From positions 1 through 35,114 of the forward strand of contig DAIDIF010000242.1 in the NCBI GenBank assembly GCA_027451805.1: a stretch of 35,114 nt of DNA, written 5' to 3'. Both the position numbers and the translations under genes were made by a program. Within the stretch, counting starts at the first letter, position 1. The number at the start of each line of letters is the position of its first letter. This stretch comes from Acidobacteriota bacterium (GTDB taxonomy: Bacteria > Acidobacteriota > Terriglobia > Terriglobales > SCQP01). This document shows, in pieces, positions 14,870-20,293 of this stretch. The notes beneath the pieces were generated by a model. The model was not told the DNA's origin, made no database searches, and was given only the letters and a program-made list of their open reading frames with translations.

Positions 14870-15529
14870 GTGAACCGCCTGCTGCGTTTCCTGGGTCCGG
14901 CACTGGCCGTCGCCGCCCTGTTTGCACTGCCTGCGCTCCGGCTGGTGCTGCCCATGCTGCCGCCGGCGCAATGGAGCGTGGCCGGCATGGCTGCCGAGAT
15001 CATGCCCGCCGCCCGCTCCAACCCTCCCGCGCCCCCGGGGGCGCGCCAGCCGGATCTGCGCGAGCTGCTGCGGCAGGCGCGGACGATGCAGCAGCAGTTC
15101 GGCGGCGGCGGCGACGCGGCGTTGCAGCGGGGGTTCGCCGCCGCCGCGCTCATCCCGGCCGCGGCGCTGGCCGCCGGCGTGCTGGCGCTGCTGAGCTGGC
15201 TCTGGCTGCTGCTCGGCTGGCGGGCGGTGGCGATGGTCAACGCCGCCGGCGGCGCCGCGGCCGCGCTCTACGCCATCGGGGCCAGCGCCTGGCTGACGCA
15301 TCTGGCCCGCGCCGCCGCGGCGCAGGCGATGGCGCGCATGCAGCAGAACCTCTCCGGCATCATGCGCACGCTGGACTGGGGCAAGCTCGGGCATGAGCTT
15401 GCCGGCAACATTGGCCTGGTGCCTGAGGCCGGCCTTTACGTGCTGCTGCTCGCCTTCCTCGCCATCCTGCTGGCGCCGCCGGCGCAGCGCCGCCCGCCGG
15501 TGGCTAGCGATGGGCCAGCCGCAAATTGA
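14870..15529 (+). CDS. Multi-pass membrane protein of unknown function
   Basis: The protein of about 219 residues has a hydrophobic helix near the N-terminus (ALAVAALFALPALRLVLPM). A Pro-rich external-type loop with LRELLRQARTMQQQF follows, then two helices (AAALIPAAALAAGVLALLSWLWLLLGW and a following Ala/Gly-rich one), an amphipathic stretch and a last helix (YVLLLAFLAILLAPP). GTG 14870 is chosen over TTG 14828 because it starts just before the first helix and has TATGCT 6 nt upstream. The 3' end overlaps the convergent SDR gene by 26 bp. No function is recognised. Confidence 0.6.
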   Translation: MNRLLRFLGPALAVAALFALPALRLVLPMLPPAQWSVAGMAAEIMPAARSNPPAPPGARQPDLRELLRQARTMQQQFGGGGDAALQRGFAAAALIPAAALAAGVLALLSWLWLLLGWRAVAMVNAAGGAAAALYAIGASAWLTHLARAAAAQAMARMQQNLSGIMRTLDWGKLGHELAGNIGLVPEAGLYVLLLAFLAILLAPPAQRRPPVASDGPAAN

Positions 15530-16280
15530 GCCAGCTTCCGTCCGCCGTCCAGCCGCCGTCCACCGCCAGCGCCTGGCCGTTGATGAAGCCGCTTTCGGCC
15601 GGATCGGCCAAAAACGCCACCGCCCGCGCGACATCGTCCGGCAGCGCGAACCGCCCCATCGGCACCCGCCCGGTGATGTCGGCGTCGGTGTACAGCCCCG
15701 AATGCTGGGCGGAATCGTCCATGGCGGTCTTCACCCAGCCCGGGCAGACCGCGTTGGAGCGCACGCCGCGGCCGCCCCACTCCGCCGCCAGGGTGCGCGT
15801 CAGGCCGATCAATCCGTGCTTGCTGGCGTTGTAGGCGGCGCGGTCGGCGATGCCCACCAGGCCGGCGACGGAGGCGATGTTGATGATGCTCCCCATCGCC
15901 TGCTCCAGCATCATCGTCCCGAATGCCTGGCAGAGCAGAAACGGCCCCACCAAGTTGACCTCCAGCACCCGGCGCAGGTCCGCGGCGGCCACCGACTCCG
16001 CCGGGCAGATGAAGCTGACCCCGGCGTTGTTCACCAGCACGTCGGCGTGGCCCCAGCGCTCGCGCACCGCGGCGGCGAAGCGGCCGACGGCCGCGGCGTC
16101 GCTCACATCGCCGCGAAACTCCAGCGGTGCTTCCGGCGTGCCCAACTCGCGCACCGCGGCCGCAGTCTCGGCCATGGGCTCGCGGTCGAACAGCGCCAAG
16201 CCGTAGCCCCGCTCCGCCAGCACCTCCGCCGTCTTGCGCCCGATGCCCTGGGCCGCCCCGGTGATCGCTGCCACTCGCAT
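15504..16280 (-). CDS. Short-chain dehydrogenase/reductase
   Basis: The 258-residue classical SDR has the cofactor motif TGAAQGIG at 7-14, an Asp (LALFDRE) at the end of beta-2 suggesting NAD(H) preference, NNAG, and the catalytic Ser (NIASVAG) and YNASK (Tyr and Lys). It ends with FINGQALAVDGGW, typical of FabG-like family members. It is a cytoplasmic oxidoreductase acting on an alcohol or ketone; the substrate cannot be told. It is divergent from the radical SAM gene with only 38 bp between the start codons. TATGCT lies 6 nt before its ATG. Confidence 0.93.
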   Translation of the reverse strand: MRVAAITGAAQGIGRKTAEVLAERGYGLALFDREPMAETAAAVRELGTPEAPLEFRGDVSDAAAVGRFAAAVRERWGHADVLVNNAGVSFICPAESVAAADLRRVLEVNLVGPFLLCQAFGTMMLEQAMGSIINIASVAGLVGIADRAAYNASKHGLIGLTRTLAAEWGGRGVRSNAVCPGWVKTAMDDSAQHSGLYTDADITGRVPMGRFALPDDVARAVAFLADPAESGFINGQALAVDGGWTADGSWLNLRLAHR

Positions 16281-16318: not shown

Positions 16319-17701
16319 ATGCGGGTGGTCCTGATCTCGACCTACGATCTGGGCCACCAGCCCTTTGGCCTGGCCTCGCCCGCCGCCTGGCTGCGCCGCG
16401 CCGGGTTCGACGTCGTGCTCGCCGACACCTCCCGCCGGCCGCTGCCCGCCGCCGAACTCGCGGGCGCCGGTCTGATGGGGCTCTTCCTGCCCATGCACAC
16501 CGCCACCCGCCTGGCGCTGCGCCTGCTGCCGGGGCTGCGCGCGGCCGCTCCCCGCGCCCATGTCTGCGCGTACGGCCTGTACGCCCCGCTGCATCGCGCC
16601 CACCTCGAAGCGTCCGGCGTGGACACCGTTCTCGGCGCCGAGTTCGAGGCCGAGCTACTCGCCCTCGCCGAAGCGGTGCGCGCCGGTGCACCGCCGCCCG
16701 CCCGGGGCGCGGCGGCGCTCCCGCGGCTTGACTTTCTGCCGCCCGATCGCGCCGGCCTGCCGCCGCTCGACCGCTACGCCCGGCTGGTCCTGCCTGACGG
16801 CAGCGAGCGCCTCGCCGGCAGCACCGAAGCCACGCGCGGATGCCGGCATCGCTGCCGCCACTGCCCGATCACGCCGGTCTACCAGGGCCAACTGCGCGTC
16901 GTCCGGCGCGATGCCGTCCTGGCCGACATCCGCCAGCAGGTCGCCGCGGGCGCCGGGCACATCACCTTCGCCGATGCCGACTTCTTCAACGGCCCGGCCC
17001 ACGCGATGCGCATCGCGGAGGCCCTGCACGCCGAGTTTCCCTCCCTCAGCTTCGACGCCACCATCAAGATTGAGCACCTGCTGCGCCATCGCCGCCTGCT
17101 GCCGCGCCTGCGCGAGTGCGGCTGCCTGATGGTCACGACCGCGGCTGAATCTTTCGACGACGCGCTGCTCGCCAAGCTGGACAAGGGCCATACCGCCGCC
17201 GATTTCGAACGCGCGCTCGCCCTGACCGCCGCCGCCGGGCTCGCCCTCAACCCCACCTTCCTCGCCTTCACTCCCTGGACCACGGTTTGCGGCTACGGCG
17301 AGATGCTCGCCCATCTCCGCCGCCTCGGCCTGGCGGAACAGATCGCGCCGGTGCAGCTCGGCATGCGCCTGCTGATCCCGCCGGGCTCGCCCCTGCTGGA
17401 GCTGCCCGACGCCGGCGCCTGGCTCGGCGCTTTTATCCCCGCCGAGCTGAGTTACCGCTGGCGCGGGCTCGATCGCGACGCCGAGGGCCTCTACGCCCGG
17501 GTGCAGGCGCTGATCGCGCGCGCCAGCAAGGCCGGCCGCCCGCGCGCCGAAATCTTCGCTCAACTCGAAGCGCTGGCTCCGCCCGGCGCCTACGATCCAC
17601 CGCCCCAGGCGCCGCCCCGCGCCACCATCCCCTACTTGAACGAACCCTGGTTCTGTTGAGCCGAGCCCACCGGCGAGCAGTTCGCCCGCCTAATGACTTG
17701 A
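16319..17701 (+). CDS. CUAEP-tail B12-binding-like radical SAM selenoprotein (TGA 17657 read as Sec)
   Basis: Residues 1 to about 115 resemble a B12-binding Rossmann-like domain, without the canonical DxHxxG. The radical SAM core follows, with the 4Fe-4S/SAM motif C175-x3-C179-x2-C182 (CRHRCRHCPI). A conventional reading ends after Cys446 at TGA 17657-17659. The frame continues with Ala-Glu-Pro and ten more residues (TGEQFARLMT) to TGA 17699-17701. The junction NEPWFC-U-AEP is exactly the C-terminal tail of the CUAEP/CCAEP-tail radical SAM family, in which the second position is Sec or Cys. A hairpin 12 nt after the first TGA fits a SECIS. The full product is 460 residues. Reaction and substrate are unknown; the redox-active Cys-Sec pair suggests thiol/selenol chemistry. 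An ATP-grasp ligase follows 29 bp later. The selA, selB, selC and selD genes must lie elsewhere. Confidence 0.88.
17672..17686 (+). promoter_or_regulatory. Putative bacterial SECIS apical stem-loop
   Basis: GGCGA (17672-17676), loop GCAGT (17677-17681) and TCGCC (17682-17686) form a perfect 5-bp hairpin beginning 12 nt after the in-frame TGA. Bacterial SECIS elements lie just downstream of the UGA inside the coding sequence, with a short apical stem and a G in the first two loop positions; the first loop base here is G. Binding by SelB is inferred. Confidence 0.65.
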
Positions 17702-17730: not shown

Positions 17731-18999
17731 ATGGCCGCGCCTCCGCGCGTTTTGCTCGTCTCCGCCACCACCGGCTACCAGGCGGACAGCTTCCGCACCG
17801 CCGCCGAACGCCTGGGCGTGAGCCTCGCGCTGGCCACCGACCGCTGCGACCAACTCGGGGATCCCTGGCGCGACCAGGCGATTCCGGTGCGCTTCGACCA
17901 GCCCAAGGCTGCGCTCGAAGGTCTGCGCAAACGCCCGCCCTTTCAGGGCATCACCGCCATCGGGGATCGCGCCGCGCTGCTCGCCGCCCAGATTGCCGCC
18001 GGCTTCGGGCTGCGCTTCCACTCCCCGCTCTCGGCGGCGCTGGCGCACGACAAGTTTGCTTTCCGCCAGGCGCTGGCCGCCGCCGGCCTGCCGGCGCCCA
18101 AGTTCCGCCGCTTCGGTCTGGACACCGATCCTGCGGTCGCCGCTTCCCAGGTGGAGTATCCCTGCGTGCTCAAGCCGCTGATGCTTTCCGCCAGCCGCGG
18201 CGTCATCCGCGCCAACAACGCCGGCGAGTTCACCGCCGCCTTCGCCCGCATCCGCCAGTTGCTGGCCCGCCCCGAGATCCAGCAATGGCACAACCCCAAC
18301 GCCGCTTGGCTGCTGAGCGAAACCTACGTCCCCGGCCGCGAGGTCGCGCTCGAAGGTTGGATGGAGGCGGGCACGTTGCAGCGCTTCGCTTTCTTCGACA
18401 AGCCCGACCCGCTGGAGGGCCCGTATTTCGAAGAGTCGGTCTATGTCACGCCCTCGCGCTTGGAGTTGAACCAGCGCGCGCTGATCTGGGACGTCGTCGA
18501 ATCCGCCGCCCGCGCCGCCTCGCTCGGCCCCGGCCCCATCCATGCGGAGATCCGTTTCACGCCCGACGACACGCCCTACGTTCTCGAGATCGCCGCCCGC
18601 CCCATCGGCGGCCTCTGCGCGCGCACGCTGCGCTTCCGCCGTCCGCCCAGCCCCGAGCCCATTACGCTCGAGGAGTTGCTGCTGCGCGGCGCGCTGGGCG
18701 AGCCGCTCGCCGCCTGGGAGCGCGACACCGCGCCCGCCGGCGTGATGATGATTCCGGTGCCCGAGGGCGGCGTGCTCGATCGCGTGGACGGCATCGAAAC
18801 GGCGCGCCGCATCCCCGGGGTCGAAGCCGTCGAGATCACCGCAAAGCCGGGCGAACCGCTGGCGCCGCTGCCCGAAGGCGCATCCTACCTGGGCTTCATC
18901 TTCGCCCGCAGCGCCACGCCCGCGGCGGTCGAGCAGGCGCTGCGCGCCGCCCACGCCCGCCTCGCCATCCATATGCGCCAGGCGCTGCCGGTGGTGTAG
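17731..18999 (+). CDS. ATP-grasp ligase with L-amino-acid-ligase-type C-terminus
   Basis: The 422-residue protein has an N-terminal pre-ATP-grasp Rossmann-like segment (residues 1-105) and an ATP-grasp core at about 108-300. The core includes DKFAFRQALAAAGLPAPKF, YPCVLKPLMLSASRGV (ATP-binding Lys and glycine/serine loop), SETYVPGREVALEG and the Mg-binding segment IHAEIRFTPDDTPYVLEIAARPIGG. The C-terminal part (about 320-410) resembles the LAL_C2 domain of L-amino acid ligases. Such enzymes join a carboxylate to an amine through an acyl-phosphate. Position right after the CUAEP radical SAM gene suggests a shared pathway, possibly modification of a small amino acid or peptide. That is inference. 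No precursor peptide gene is evident between them. Confidence 0.87.
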   Translation: MAAPPRVLLVSATTGYQADSFRTAAERLGVSLALATDRCDQLGDPWRDQAIPVRFDQPKAALEGLRKRPPFQGITAIGDRAALLAAQIAAGFGLRFHSPLSAALAHDKFAFRQALAAAGLPAPKFRRFGLDTDPAVAASQVEYPCVLKPLMLSASRGVIRANNAGEFTAAFARIRQLLARPEIQQWHNPNAAWLLSETYVPGREVALEGWMEAGTLQRFAFFDKPDPLEGPYFEESVYVTPSRLELNQRALIWDVVESAARAASLGPGPIHAEIRFTPDDTPYVLEIAARPIGGLCARTLRFRRPPSPEPITLEELLLRGALGEPLAAWERDTAPAGVMMIPVPEGGVLDRVDGIETARRIPGVEAVEITAKPGEPLAPLPEGASYLGFIFARSATPAAVEQALRAAHARLAIHMRQALPVV

Positions 19000-19027: not shown

Positions 19028-19303
19028 CTATTTGCTGCGCTGCGGAACGAAGCCGGGCGGCAACTGCGCGCCTTGGCCGAAGAAGAACTGCTCCAGTTGC
19101 TCGTTGATGATCTTCTGCGCTTCCGGGGTCCAGGGCGCGAGGCGGTACTCGTTCATCAGCATCTTGGCGTGTTCCTTCCACAACGTCCACGCCTGCGCCG
19201 AGACGTTCTCGTAGATGCGCTGCCCCAGCTCGCCCGGCCAAGGCGGCTCCTCCAGGCCGGGCAGTTCCTGTCCGAATTTCACGCAATGGACCATGCGCGC
19301 CAT
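19028..19303 (-). CDS. yggX: Probable Fe(2+)-trafficking protein, YggX family
   Basis: The 91-residue protein [17 protein letters not shown], then [31 protein letters not shown] and a C-terminal FFFGQG match the YggX family, including the conserved Cys near the N-terminus (Cys7) and the Pro-Gly-x-x-G turn. YggX protects iron-sulfur clusters and reduces oxidative damage in the cytoplasm. ATG 19303 gives the canonical N-terminus; the frame upstream stays open but is antisense to fmt. It ends 28 bp from the convergent ATP-grasp gene and is divergent from fmt with only 18 bp between starts. Confidence 0.93.
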
Positions 19304-19308
19304 CCGAT

Positions 19309-19315
19309 TATGATA
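19309..19315. promoter_or_regulatory. Symmetric -10 region shared by yggX and fmt
   Basis: The plus strand reads TATGAT (19309-19314) and then 7 nt to GTG 19322 of fmt. The minus strand reads TATCAT (19315 to 19310) and then 6 nt to ATG 19303 of yggX. The two hexamers share five base pairs in an almost palindromic ATTATGATAAT. Both mRNAs would be leaderless. Confidence 0.5.
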
Positions 19316-19321
19316 ATCCAC

Positions 19322-20293
19322 GTGCGCATCGTGTTTCTGGGCACGCCCGAATTCGCCGTGCCCACGCTGGAACGCCTGGCCCGCGAGCCCGGCCTGGAGC
19401 TCAGCGCCGTGGTCTGCCAGCCCGACCGTCCGGCCGGGCGCGGCGGCGGGTTGCGCGCGCCGGCGGTCAAGCTCGCCGCCGCCGCGCTCGGGCTGCCGGT
19501 CTACCAGCCGCAGCGTCTGGGTGGGGCCGACGGCGTCGCCTGGCTGCGCCAGCAACAGCCGGACGCGCTGGCGGTGGTGGCGTTCGGCCAGTTATTGCCG
19601 CCCGCCATCTTCGAGCTCCCCCGCTTCGGCGCCGTCAACGCCCACGCCTCGCTGCTGCCGCTGTACCGCGGCGCGGCGCCCATCCAGCGGGCGATCGCGC
19701 AGGGGGAGACCCGCACCGGCGTCACCACCATGCGCATCAACGCCGGACTGGACACCGGCGACCTGCTGCTGCAGCGCTCGCTCGACATTCCGCCCGATGC
19801 CACCGCGCTCGAGCTCGCGCCCCGCCTGGCCGCGCTCGCCGCTGATCTCATGGCGGAGACCCTGCTGGGGCTGGAGGCCGGCCGCCTCATTGCCCGCCCA
19901 CAGCCGCCCGAAGGAACGCTCACGCCACGCCTGCGGCGCGAGGACGGCGAGATCGACTGGGCCTCCCCCGCCGGCGAAATCCACAACCGCTGGCGCGGGT
20001 TTCAGCCCTGGCCCGGTCTGCACACCCGCTTCCGCGGTCAGCAACTGGCCATCCTCGCCTGCCGCCCGATGCCGGCGTCCGCCGCCCCCACCCCGCCCGG
20101 CCAAATGGCACTGCGAGGCAATGAGCTCTCGGTCCAGTGCGGCGAGGGCCGTCTCGGCCTCGATCTGGTCCGCCTGGAAAGCCGCAAGGCCGTCTCCGGC
20201 GGCGATTTTGCCCGCGGCGCCCACCTTCAGCCCGGCGAAATCCTCGGCCCCCGAACCCGCCCCGCGCTTGACCCTTTTTCGGGGCTCCATTAG
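19322..20293 (+). CDS. fmt: Methionyl-tRNA formyltransferase
   Basis: The enzyme formylates initiator Met-tRNA using 10-formyl-tetrahydrofolate. GTG 19322 gives exactly the canonical N-terminus [19 protein letters not shown] 19310 would add four residues and is disfavoured. Other signatures are [28 protein letters not shown] (catalytic Asn/His region NAHASLLP) and [15 protein letters not shown]. The C-terminal OB-like tRNA-binding domain is at about 205-310 ([12 protein letters not shown]). Length is 323 residues, a normal size. No def gene is adjacent. Its 3' end contains the promoter of the atp operon, whose -10 overlaps the stop codon TAG 20291-20293. Confidence 0.96.

What the first reader, a model, noticed from the sequence alone, without database searches (positions are those of the whole stretch)
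16319..17701. Radical SAM gene is a selenoprotein: in-frame TGA in a CUAEP tail
Directly seen: the frame reads Cys(17654)-TGA(17657)-Ala-Glu-Pro and stays open to TGA 17699, adding 13 sense codons. A GGCGA/TCGCC hairpin with loop GCAGT begins 12 nt after the first TGA. Known: one radical SAM family is defined by a C-terminal CUAEP or CCAEP tail in which U is Sec. Inference: the TGA is recoded, and a standard annotation would truncate the protein to 446 residues and lose the Cys-Sec-Ala-Glu-Pro end.
Basis: partly seen in the sequence, partly recalled or inferred. Interest (0 to 1): 0.92.

Follow-up and report, generated by a model that had tools for sequence, protein, structure and literature searches.

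The report
Radical SAM selenoprotein with Cys-Sec tail
This gene's apparent stop codon is almost certainly read as selenocysteine, which adds a Cys-Sec-Ala-Glu-Pro tail to a radical SAM enzyme; the family is already in NCBI's curated library, but its chemistry is unknown, and its kinship to the arsinothricin enzyme and its amino-acid-ligase partner gene give a testable lead.

Summary
The observation and the interpretation both hold. The frame 16319-17701 is open apart from TGA 17657-17659 and reads ...EPWFC-U-AEPTGEQFARLMT. It scores 593 bits against NCBIfam NF040546, 'CUAEP/CCAEP-tail radical SAM (seleno)protein' (cut-off 500): a new member of a known, curated kind. The genome has tRNA-Sec, SelA, SelD and a broken-off SelB. 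Among 87 homologs, 56 have TGA and 31 have Cys codons at this column. TGA homologs keep a SECIS hairpin far beyond what their amino acids require (5.7 against 1.9 stem pairs, z about 25); Cys homologs have mostly lost it. U/C switched at least 15 times on the tree.

Beyond the finding: (i) the nearest relative is ArsL (arsinothricin synthesis), whose C-terminus also has a Cys pair; (ii) most loci with room have an L-amino-acid-ligase-like ATP-grasp gene alongside, as do 5 of 6 ArsL clusters inspected; (iii) two Chloroflexota members have Sec at the first position (U-U, U-C). Best guess: the tail presents a soft substrate for 3-amino-3-carboxypropyl transfer and the ligase uses the product. That chemistry is inference.

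The parts
16319..17701 (+). Full read-through reading frame of a CUAEP-tail radical SAM selenoprotein, 460 residues with Sec at 447
   Evidence: NF040546, 593 bits, residues 3-456 matched to profile 1-467 of 468; PF04055 Radical_SAM
16841..16864 (+). CxxxCxxC motif (Cys175, Cys179, Cys182) for the SAM-binding [4Fe-4S] cluster
   Evidence: invariant in 51 aligned members and in four ArsL; cluster role from established knowledge of radical SAM enzymes
17654..17656 (+). Cys446 codon TGT, first residue of the vicinal pair
   Evidence: Cys in nearly all members read through the tail; Sec in L072 and L123
17657..17659 (+). TGA read as selenocysteine 447
   Evidence: 56 TGA, 31 Cys codons at this column among 87 homologs
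17672..17690 (+). Bacterial SECIS hairpin GGCG.GC(AGUUC)GC.CGCC, loop at 17679-17683, 19 nt after the TGA
   Evidence: meets the bSECIS rules quoted in PMC13188914
17699..17701 (+). Actual stop codon TGA
   Evidence: family tails end within a few to about 50 codons after AEP
17731..18999 (+). ATP-grasp ligase, L-amino acid ligase type, 29 nt downstream of the radical SAM gene; likely co-transcribed partner
   Evidence: PF13535 and PF18603 LAL_C2; best PDB match 3vot L-amino acid ligase BL00235, 5e-31; beside the radical SAM gene in most loci with room
15504..16280 (-). Divergent SDR-family dehydrogenase; seen beside few relatives, probably not part of the system
   Evidence: only 5 of 89 loci hit
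19028..19555 (-). ORF that holds a YggX-like Fe(II)-trafficking protein, convergent with the ATP-grasp gene; frequent neighbour, role uncertain
   Evidence: YggX-like in 38 of 89 loci, mostly convergent about 1.5-1.9 kb downstream; identified from memory of the family sequence

Best explanation
The gene encodes a 460-residue radical SAM selenoprotein of family NF040546. SelB with Sec-tRNA reads TGA 17657 as selenocysteine by using the hairpin at 17672-17690, which gives a C-terminal Cys-Sec-Ala-Glu-Pro tail. This part is shown by comparative evidence and I hold it at about 0.96. The tail is predicted to be mobile and works like the vicinal Cys pair at the end of the sister enzyme ArsL: it binds and presents a soft, thiophilic (probably metalloid) substrate at the radical SAM site. 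[quoted passage not shown] This part is inferred from relationship and gene pairing, is not shown, and I hold it at about 0.4. The confidence given here is for the whole statement.
For: Sec: family match 593 bits; tRNA-Sec, SelA, SelD and SelB GTPase part in the same genome; TGA 56, Cys 31 at the column; at least 15 U/C switches on the tree, 9 forced by well-supported branches; TGA homologs have 5.74 contiguous stem pairs against 1.92 for synonymous recodings (z about 25) and 54 of 55 keep loop AG[GU], Cys homologs have 1.84 pairs; selA in 19 of 20 TGA genomes but 19 of 30 Cys genomes (Fisher p 0.016). Mechanism: second-best family is ArsL, 237 bits over residues 4-395; about 30% identity to four ArsL, whose C-terminal KRCCLKC puts a Cys pair in the same columns; ArsL is described as transferring aminocarboxypropyl to As(III) (PMC8552651); AlphaFold model pLDDT 92 overall but 62-78 in the last 40 residues; ATP-grasp of L-amino-acid-ligase type on the same strand within 1.2 kb in 47 of 75 loci with room, 53 of 75 with it anywhere in the stretch; ATP-grasp gene in 5 of 6 ArsL clusters inspected.
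Against: No arsenic genes lie near the family: tblastn with ArsM, ArsR, ArsQ, ArsN1, aquaporin and the arsenic transporter found ArsM-like genes in at most 3 of 89 loci and the others in none. Binding of As(III) by the ArsL tail is my expectation and was not found in the papers read. The window's ATP-grasp resembles 3vot (111 bits) more than the ArsL-cluster ATP-grasps (47-56 bits), so the shared pairing may be independent. The window SECIS has an A.C mismatch and the fold energy of its 45-nt stretch alone is unremarkable. SelB is incomplete in the assembly.
Confidence: 0.4

Rival explanations
1. The TGA is a true stop; the protein ends at Cys446 and the downstream AEP reading is relic or chance.
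For: The window hairpin alone is not exceptional by folding energy (z -1.27 on 45 nt); the assembled SelB is incomplete.
Against: AEP and the following Q are conserved across about 87 homologs with TGA or Cys; a stem maintained far beyond coding needs; Sec genes present; an intact 7-pair stem in the same-genus L025.
Confidence: 0.02
2. It is a selenoprotein, but the Cys-Sec pair is a redox tail (selenenylsulfide, as at the C-terminus of mammalian thioredoxin reductase) that re-reduces the enzyme, its cluster or its product, and the reaction is not aminocarboxypropyl transfer.
For: Vicinal Cys-Sec near a flexible C-terminus resembles the thioredoxin reductase tail (knowledge); no arsenic genes nearby; best fold matches are AprD4, OxsB and TsrM, which do other chemistry.
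Against: The closest family by sequence is ArsL with a C-terminal Cys pair in the same columns; the ATP-grasp partner fits an amino acid product.
Confidence: 0.35
3. A cobalamin-dependent radical SAM methyltransferase that modifies a small molecule, with the Sec tail as an accessory.
For: Weak B12-binding match (PF02310, below its cut-off); structural neighbours OxsB and TsrM bind cobalamin.
Against: The best fold match is AprD4, which as I recall works without cobalamin; ArsL is closer by sequence.
Confidence: 0.12

Closest known systems
NCBIfam NF040546 rSAM_CUAEP (CUAEP/CCAEP-tail radical SAM (seleno)protein)
   Same: Whole-length match over the curated cut-off; Cys-Sec-Ala-Glu-Pro tail; Sec/Cys interchange
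   Different: Nothing essential; this copy has a one-mismatch SECIS stem. Variants CUSEP (L021, L022, L096), U-U (L072) and U-C (L123) are not in the family's name
ArsL, arsinothricin biosynthesis radical SAM (NF040542, RCCLKC tail)
   Same: About 30% identity; same CxxxCxxC; a vicinal Cys pair at the C-terminus; ATP-grasp gene in 5 of 6 clusters inspected
   Different: 237 bits against a cut-off of 450, so not a member; ArsL ends RCCLKC without Sec or AEP; it lies in ars clusters, CUAEP genes do not
Mammalian thioredoxin reductase C-terminal Gly-Cys-Sec-Gly
   Same: Vicinal Cys-Sec near a mobile C-terminus (knowledge)
   Different: Unrelated fold and no SAM chemistry; an analogy only
L-amino acid ligase BL00235 (PDB 3vot)
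   Same: Closest solved relative of the partner ATP-grasp protein
   Different: Substrates of the window protein are unknown

Membership tests
NF040546 rSAM_CUAEP | Score over the curated cut-off of 500 bits, full length | tested here: met
   593.3 bits, profile 1-467 of 468
NF040546 rSAM_CUAEP | C-terminal CUAEP or CCAEP tail with Sec (TGA) or Cys | tested here: met
   EPWFC-TGA-AEP at 17642-17668
Bacterial selenoprotein gene | bSECIS: loop 3-9 nt, upper stem 4-16 bp, G in first two loop positions, loop 16-37 nt from UGA, MFE at or below -7.5 (PMC13188914) | tested here: met
   Loop AGUUC, 6 pairs with one A.C mismatch, 19 nt from UGA, -8.0 to -9.4 kcal/mol
Bacterial selenoprotein gene | Sec insertion genes selA, selB, selC, selD in the genome | tested here: met
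   selA, selC, selD over cut-off; selB GTPase part over cut-off, the rest cut by a contig end and apparently frameshifted
Bacterial selenoprotein gene | Sec shown in the protein | not testable with these tools
   Needs mass spectrometry or selenium labelling
ArsL (NF040542) | Score over 450 bits and RCCLKC tail | tested here: not met
   237.3 bits; tail CUAEP
ArsL (NF040542) | Ars gene neighbourhood (arsM, arsR, arsQ, arsN1) | tested here: not met
   ArsM-like in at most 3 of 89 loci, others in none
Radical SAM superfamily | CxxxCxxC and Radical_SAM domain | tested here: met
   PF04055 44.6 bits (cut-off 29.5), Cys175/179/182 invariant

The most novel reading that the evidence does not exclude
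CUAEP radical SAM enzymes and their ATP-grasp partners form a widespread, mainly chromosomal module, sister to arsinothricin synthesis, that makes a peptide of an unusual (possibly metalloid- or chalcogen-containing) amino acid. A C-terminal vicinal pair presents the soft substrate, and either or both positions may be Cys or Sec (C-C, C-U, U-C, U-U).
Probability: 0.3. Interest if true: 0.75.

Novelty: new member of a known kind. Interest (0 to 1): 0.42.

Why it matters
Annotation pipelines can cut such genes at the Sec codon and lose the likely functional tail; a RefSeq record does exactly that. One scan found 542 genome loci that encode relatives, yet no paper in the held library names the family by its motif or accession. 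Its kinship to ArsL, the shared ATP-grasp association and the interchangeable Cys/Sec pair turn an unknown selenoprotein into a testable enzyme hypothesis.

Tried and rejected
Rfam on the window gave only a tRNA-Leu. Paper searches for CUAEP and NF040546 found nothing; the Haft papers were not held. I rejected arsenic as a demonstrated substrate because ars genes are absent from the neighbourhoods. I rejected membership in ArsL on score and tail. I rejected the SDR neighbour as part of the system (5 of 89 loci). The largest neighbour cluster is probably antisense reading of the ATP-grasp gene and was discarded. The folding energy of the 45-nt tail in the window was not significant on its own, so the argument rests on comparison. 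A pattern scan of 400 Chloroflexota genomes for first-position Sec found only the one already known.

Full report
Observation. The reading frame at 16319 is open to 17659 (446 aa) and, if TGA 17657-17659 is read through, goes on for AEPTGEQFARLMT to TGA 17699. All coordinates in the finding are right. The hairpin starts at 17672, 12 nt after the TGA.

Identity. The read-through protein scores 593 bits against NF040546, 'CUAEP/CCAEP-tail radical SAM (seleno)protein' (cut-off 500), over nearly the whole profile. The next family is ArsL at 237 bits (cut-off 450). The finding is therefore correct but already catalogued as a kind.

Sec machinery. The window's own genome (3.16 Mb, 305 contigs, 95% complete) holds tRNA-Sec (71.9 bits, gathering score 47, called SeC by ARAGORN), SelA (467 bits), SelD (365 bits) and the GTPase part of SelB (270 bits). 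The SelB gene lies at a contig start and its frame closes at 340 aa; sequence that by eye looks like the next SelB region continues in another frame but scored no family, so an assembly error is likely but not shown.

Comparative test. Nine of 60 relatives searched carry members over the cut-off, eight with TGA and one with Cys. A scan of genome contigs gave 542 relatives; the best 80 plus the relatives and the window were read at the tail: 56 TGA, 26 TGC, 5 TGT at the column, and two with TGA one codon earlier. In a Chloroflexota survey 71 of 301 genomes held a member over the cut-off, and the tails read again mixed TGA and Cys codons. On a tree of the protein bodies the state changes at least 15 times (shuffled mean about 26), 9 of them forced by well-supported branches. 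This is a quick tree with SH-aLRT support only.

SECIS. The tail aligns without gaps, so pairs can be counted directly. TGA members have on average 5.74 contiguous pairs next to the loop, against 1.92 for synonymous recodings with each gene's own codon use (z about 25, which ignores relatedness among the sequences); 54 of 55 keep a loop that starts AG followed by G or U. Cys members have 1.84 pairs (null 1.24) and 11 of 31 have such a loop. Several stem pairs vary in a compensated way (A-U, G-C, C-G). Thermomicrobia-like members keep the rule with other amino acids and a CG[GU] loop. The window stem carries an A.C mismatch at the third pair that L021 shares; the same-genus L025 has a perfect 7-pair stem. 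By the bSECIS rules quoted in PMC13188914 the window element qualifies.

Genome-level test. selA was over its cut-off in 19 of 20 genomes with TGA members and 19 of 30 with Cys members (Fisher p 0.016). Many of these are incomplete metagenome assemblies.

Surroundings. The ATP-grasp gene at 17731-18999 follows by 29 nt. Its best solved relative is L-amino acid ligase BL00235 (3vot, 5e-31). A homolog lies within 1.2 kb downstream on the same strand in 47 of 75 loci with enough sequence, and 53 of 75 have one somewhere in the stretch. A YggX-like gene is a frequent convergent neighbour (38 of 89); the divergent SDR is not conserved. Of six ArsL loci on plasmids, five (two Priestia, Alicyclobacillus, Pantoea, Klebsiella) hold an ATP-grasp gene within a few kb of arsL; the Pseudomonas one does not. 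The two ATP-grasp groups are only 25-26% identical, and the window's is closer to 3vot, so the shared pairing is suggestive and not proof of one ancestral module.

Mechanism. Alignment with four ArsL puts their C-terminal Cys-Cys in the columns of Cys446-Sec447; the tail is short there and the alignment of those columns is helped by gaps. ArsL is described as transferring the 3-amino-3-carboxypropyl group of SAM to As(III) (PMC8552651). The model of the window protein is confident (mean pLDDT 92) except in the last 40 residues (62-78), as expected of a mobile tail; its fold neighbours are AprD4, OxsB and TsrM. My reading is that the tail presents or reduces a soft substrate and the product is an amino acid for the ligase. 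The substrate element is open: ars genes are essentially absent nearby. I hold recoding and family identity at about 0.96, and the proposed chemistry at about 0.4.

Side finding. L072 (Chloroflexi bin.33) reads W-Y-U-U-A-E-P with two adjacent TGA, and L123 (Anaerolineae CHL1) reads W-Y-U-C-A-E-P. Both have a stem of the family form at the usual place, although in L123 another fold is slightly better in the stretch tested, and both genomes have selA. They are rare: one 2-TGA member in the 301-genome survey, one hit in a 400-genome pattern scan. Each rests on a single metagenome assembly.

Noticed in passing
L072:7345-7389 (JAACFF010000287.1; same as L178) and L123:7340-7383 (JAHDWK010000010.1): Sec at the first position of the vicinal pair: tandem U-U in L072, U-C in L123, with a SECIS-like stem in place and selA in both genomes. 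In L123 the lowest-energy fold competes with the expected hairpin.
   Followed up: partly
L182:7935-9371 (NC_011961.1, Thermomicrobium roseum, TRD_RS12835): The RefSeq CDS ends at the Sec TGA; the in-frame AEP and hairpin follow. A cultured organism for testing.
   Followed up: partly
L001:1-1208 (G000:C23, contig start): selB of the window's genome loses its frame after about 340 residues close to a contig end; probable assembly error or split gene.
   Followed up: partly
L184, L185, L186, L187, L188: Five plasmid ArsL (RCCLKC) clusters hold an ATP-grasp gene, some with an MFS transporter and a GTP-binding protein, which hints at a peptide form of the product.
   Followed up: partly
L096 and L097: Near-identical loci in genomes labelled Verrucomicrobia and Acidobacteria: probable binning error in one of them.
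   Followed up: no
L087 and six other loci, mostly within about 100 nt downstream of the radical SAM gene: A gene that looks like DUF169 (from memory) follows the radical SAM gene; in L087 it lies between the radical SAM and the ATP-grasp gene.
   Followed up: no
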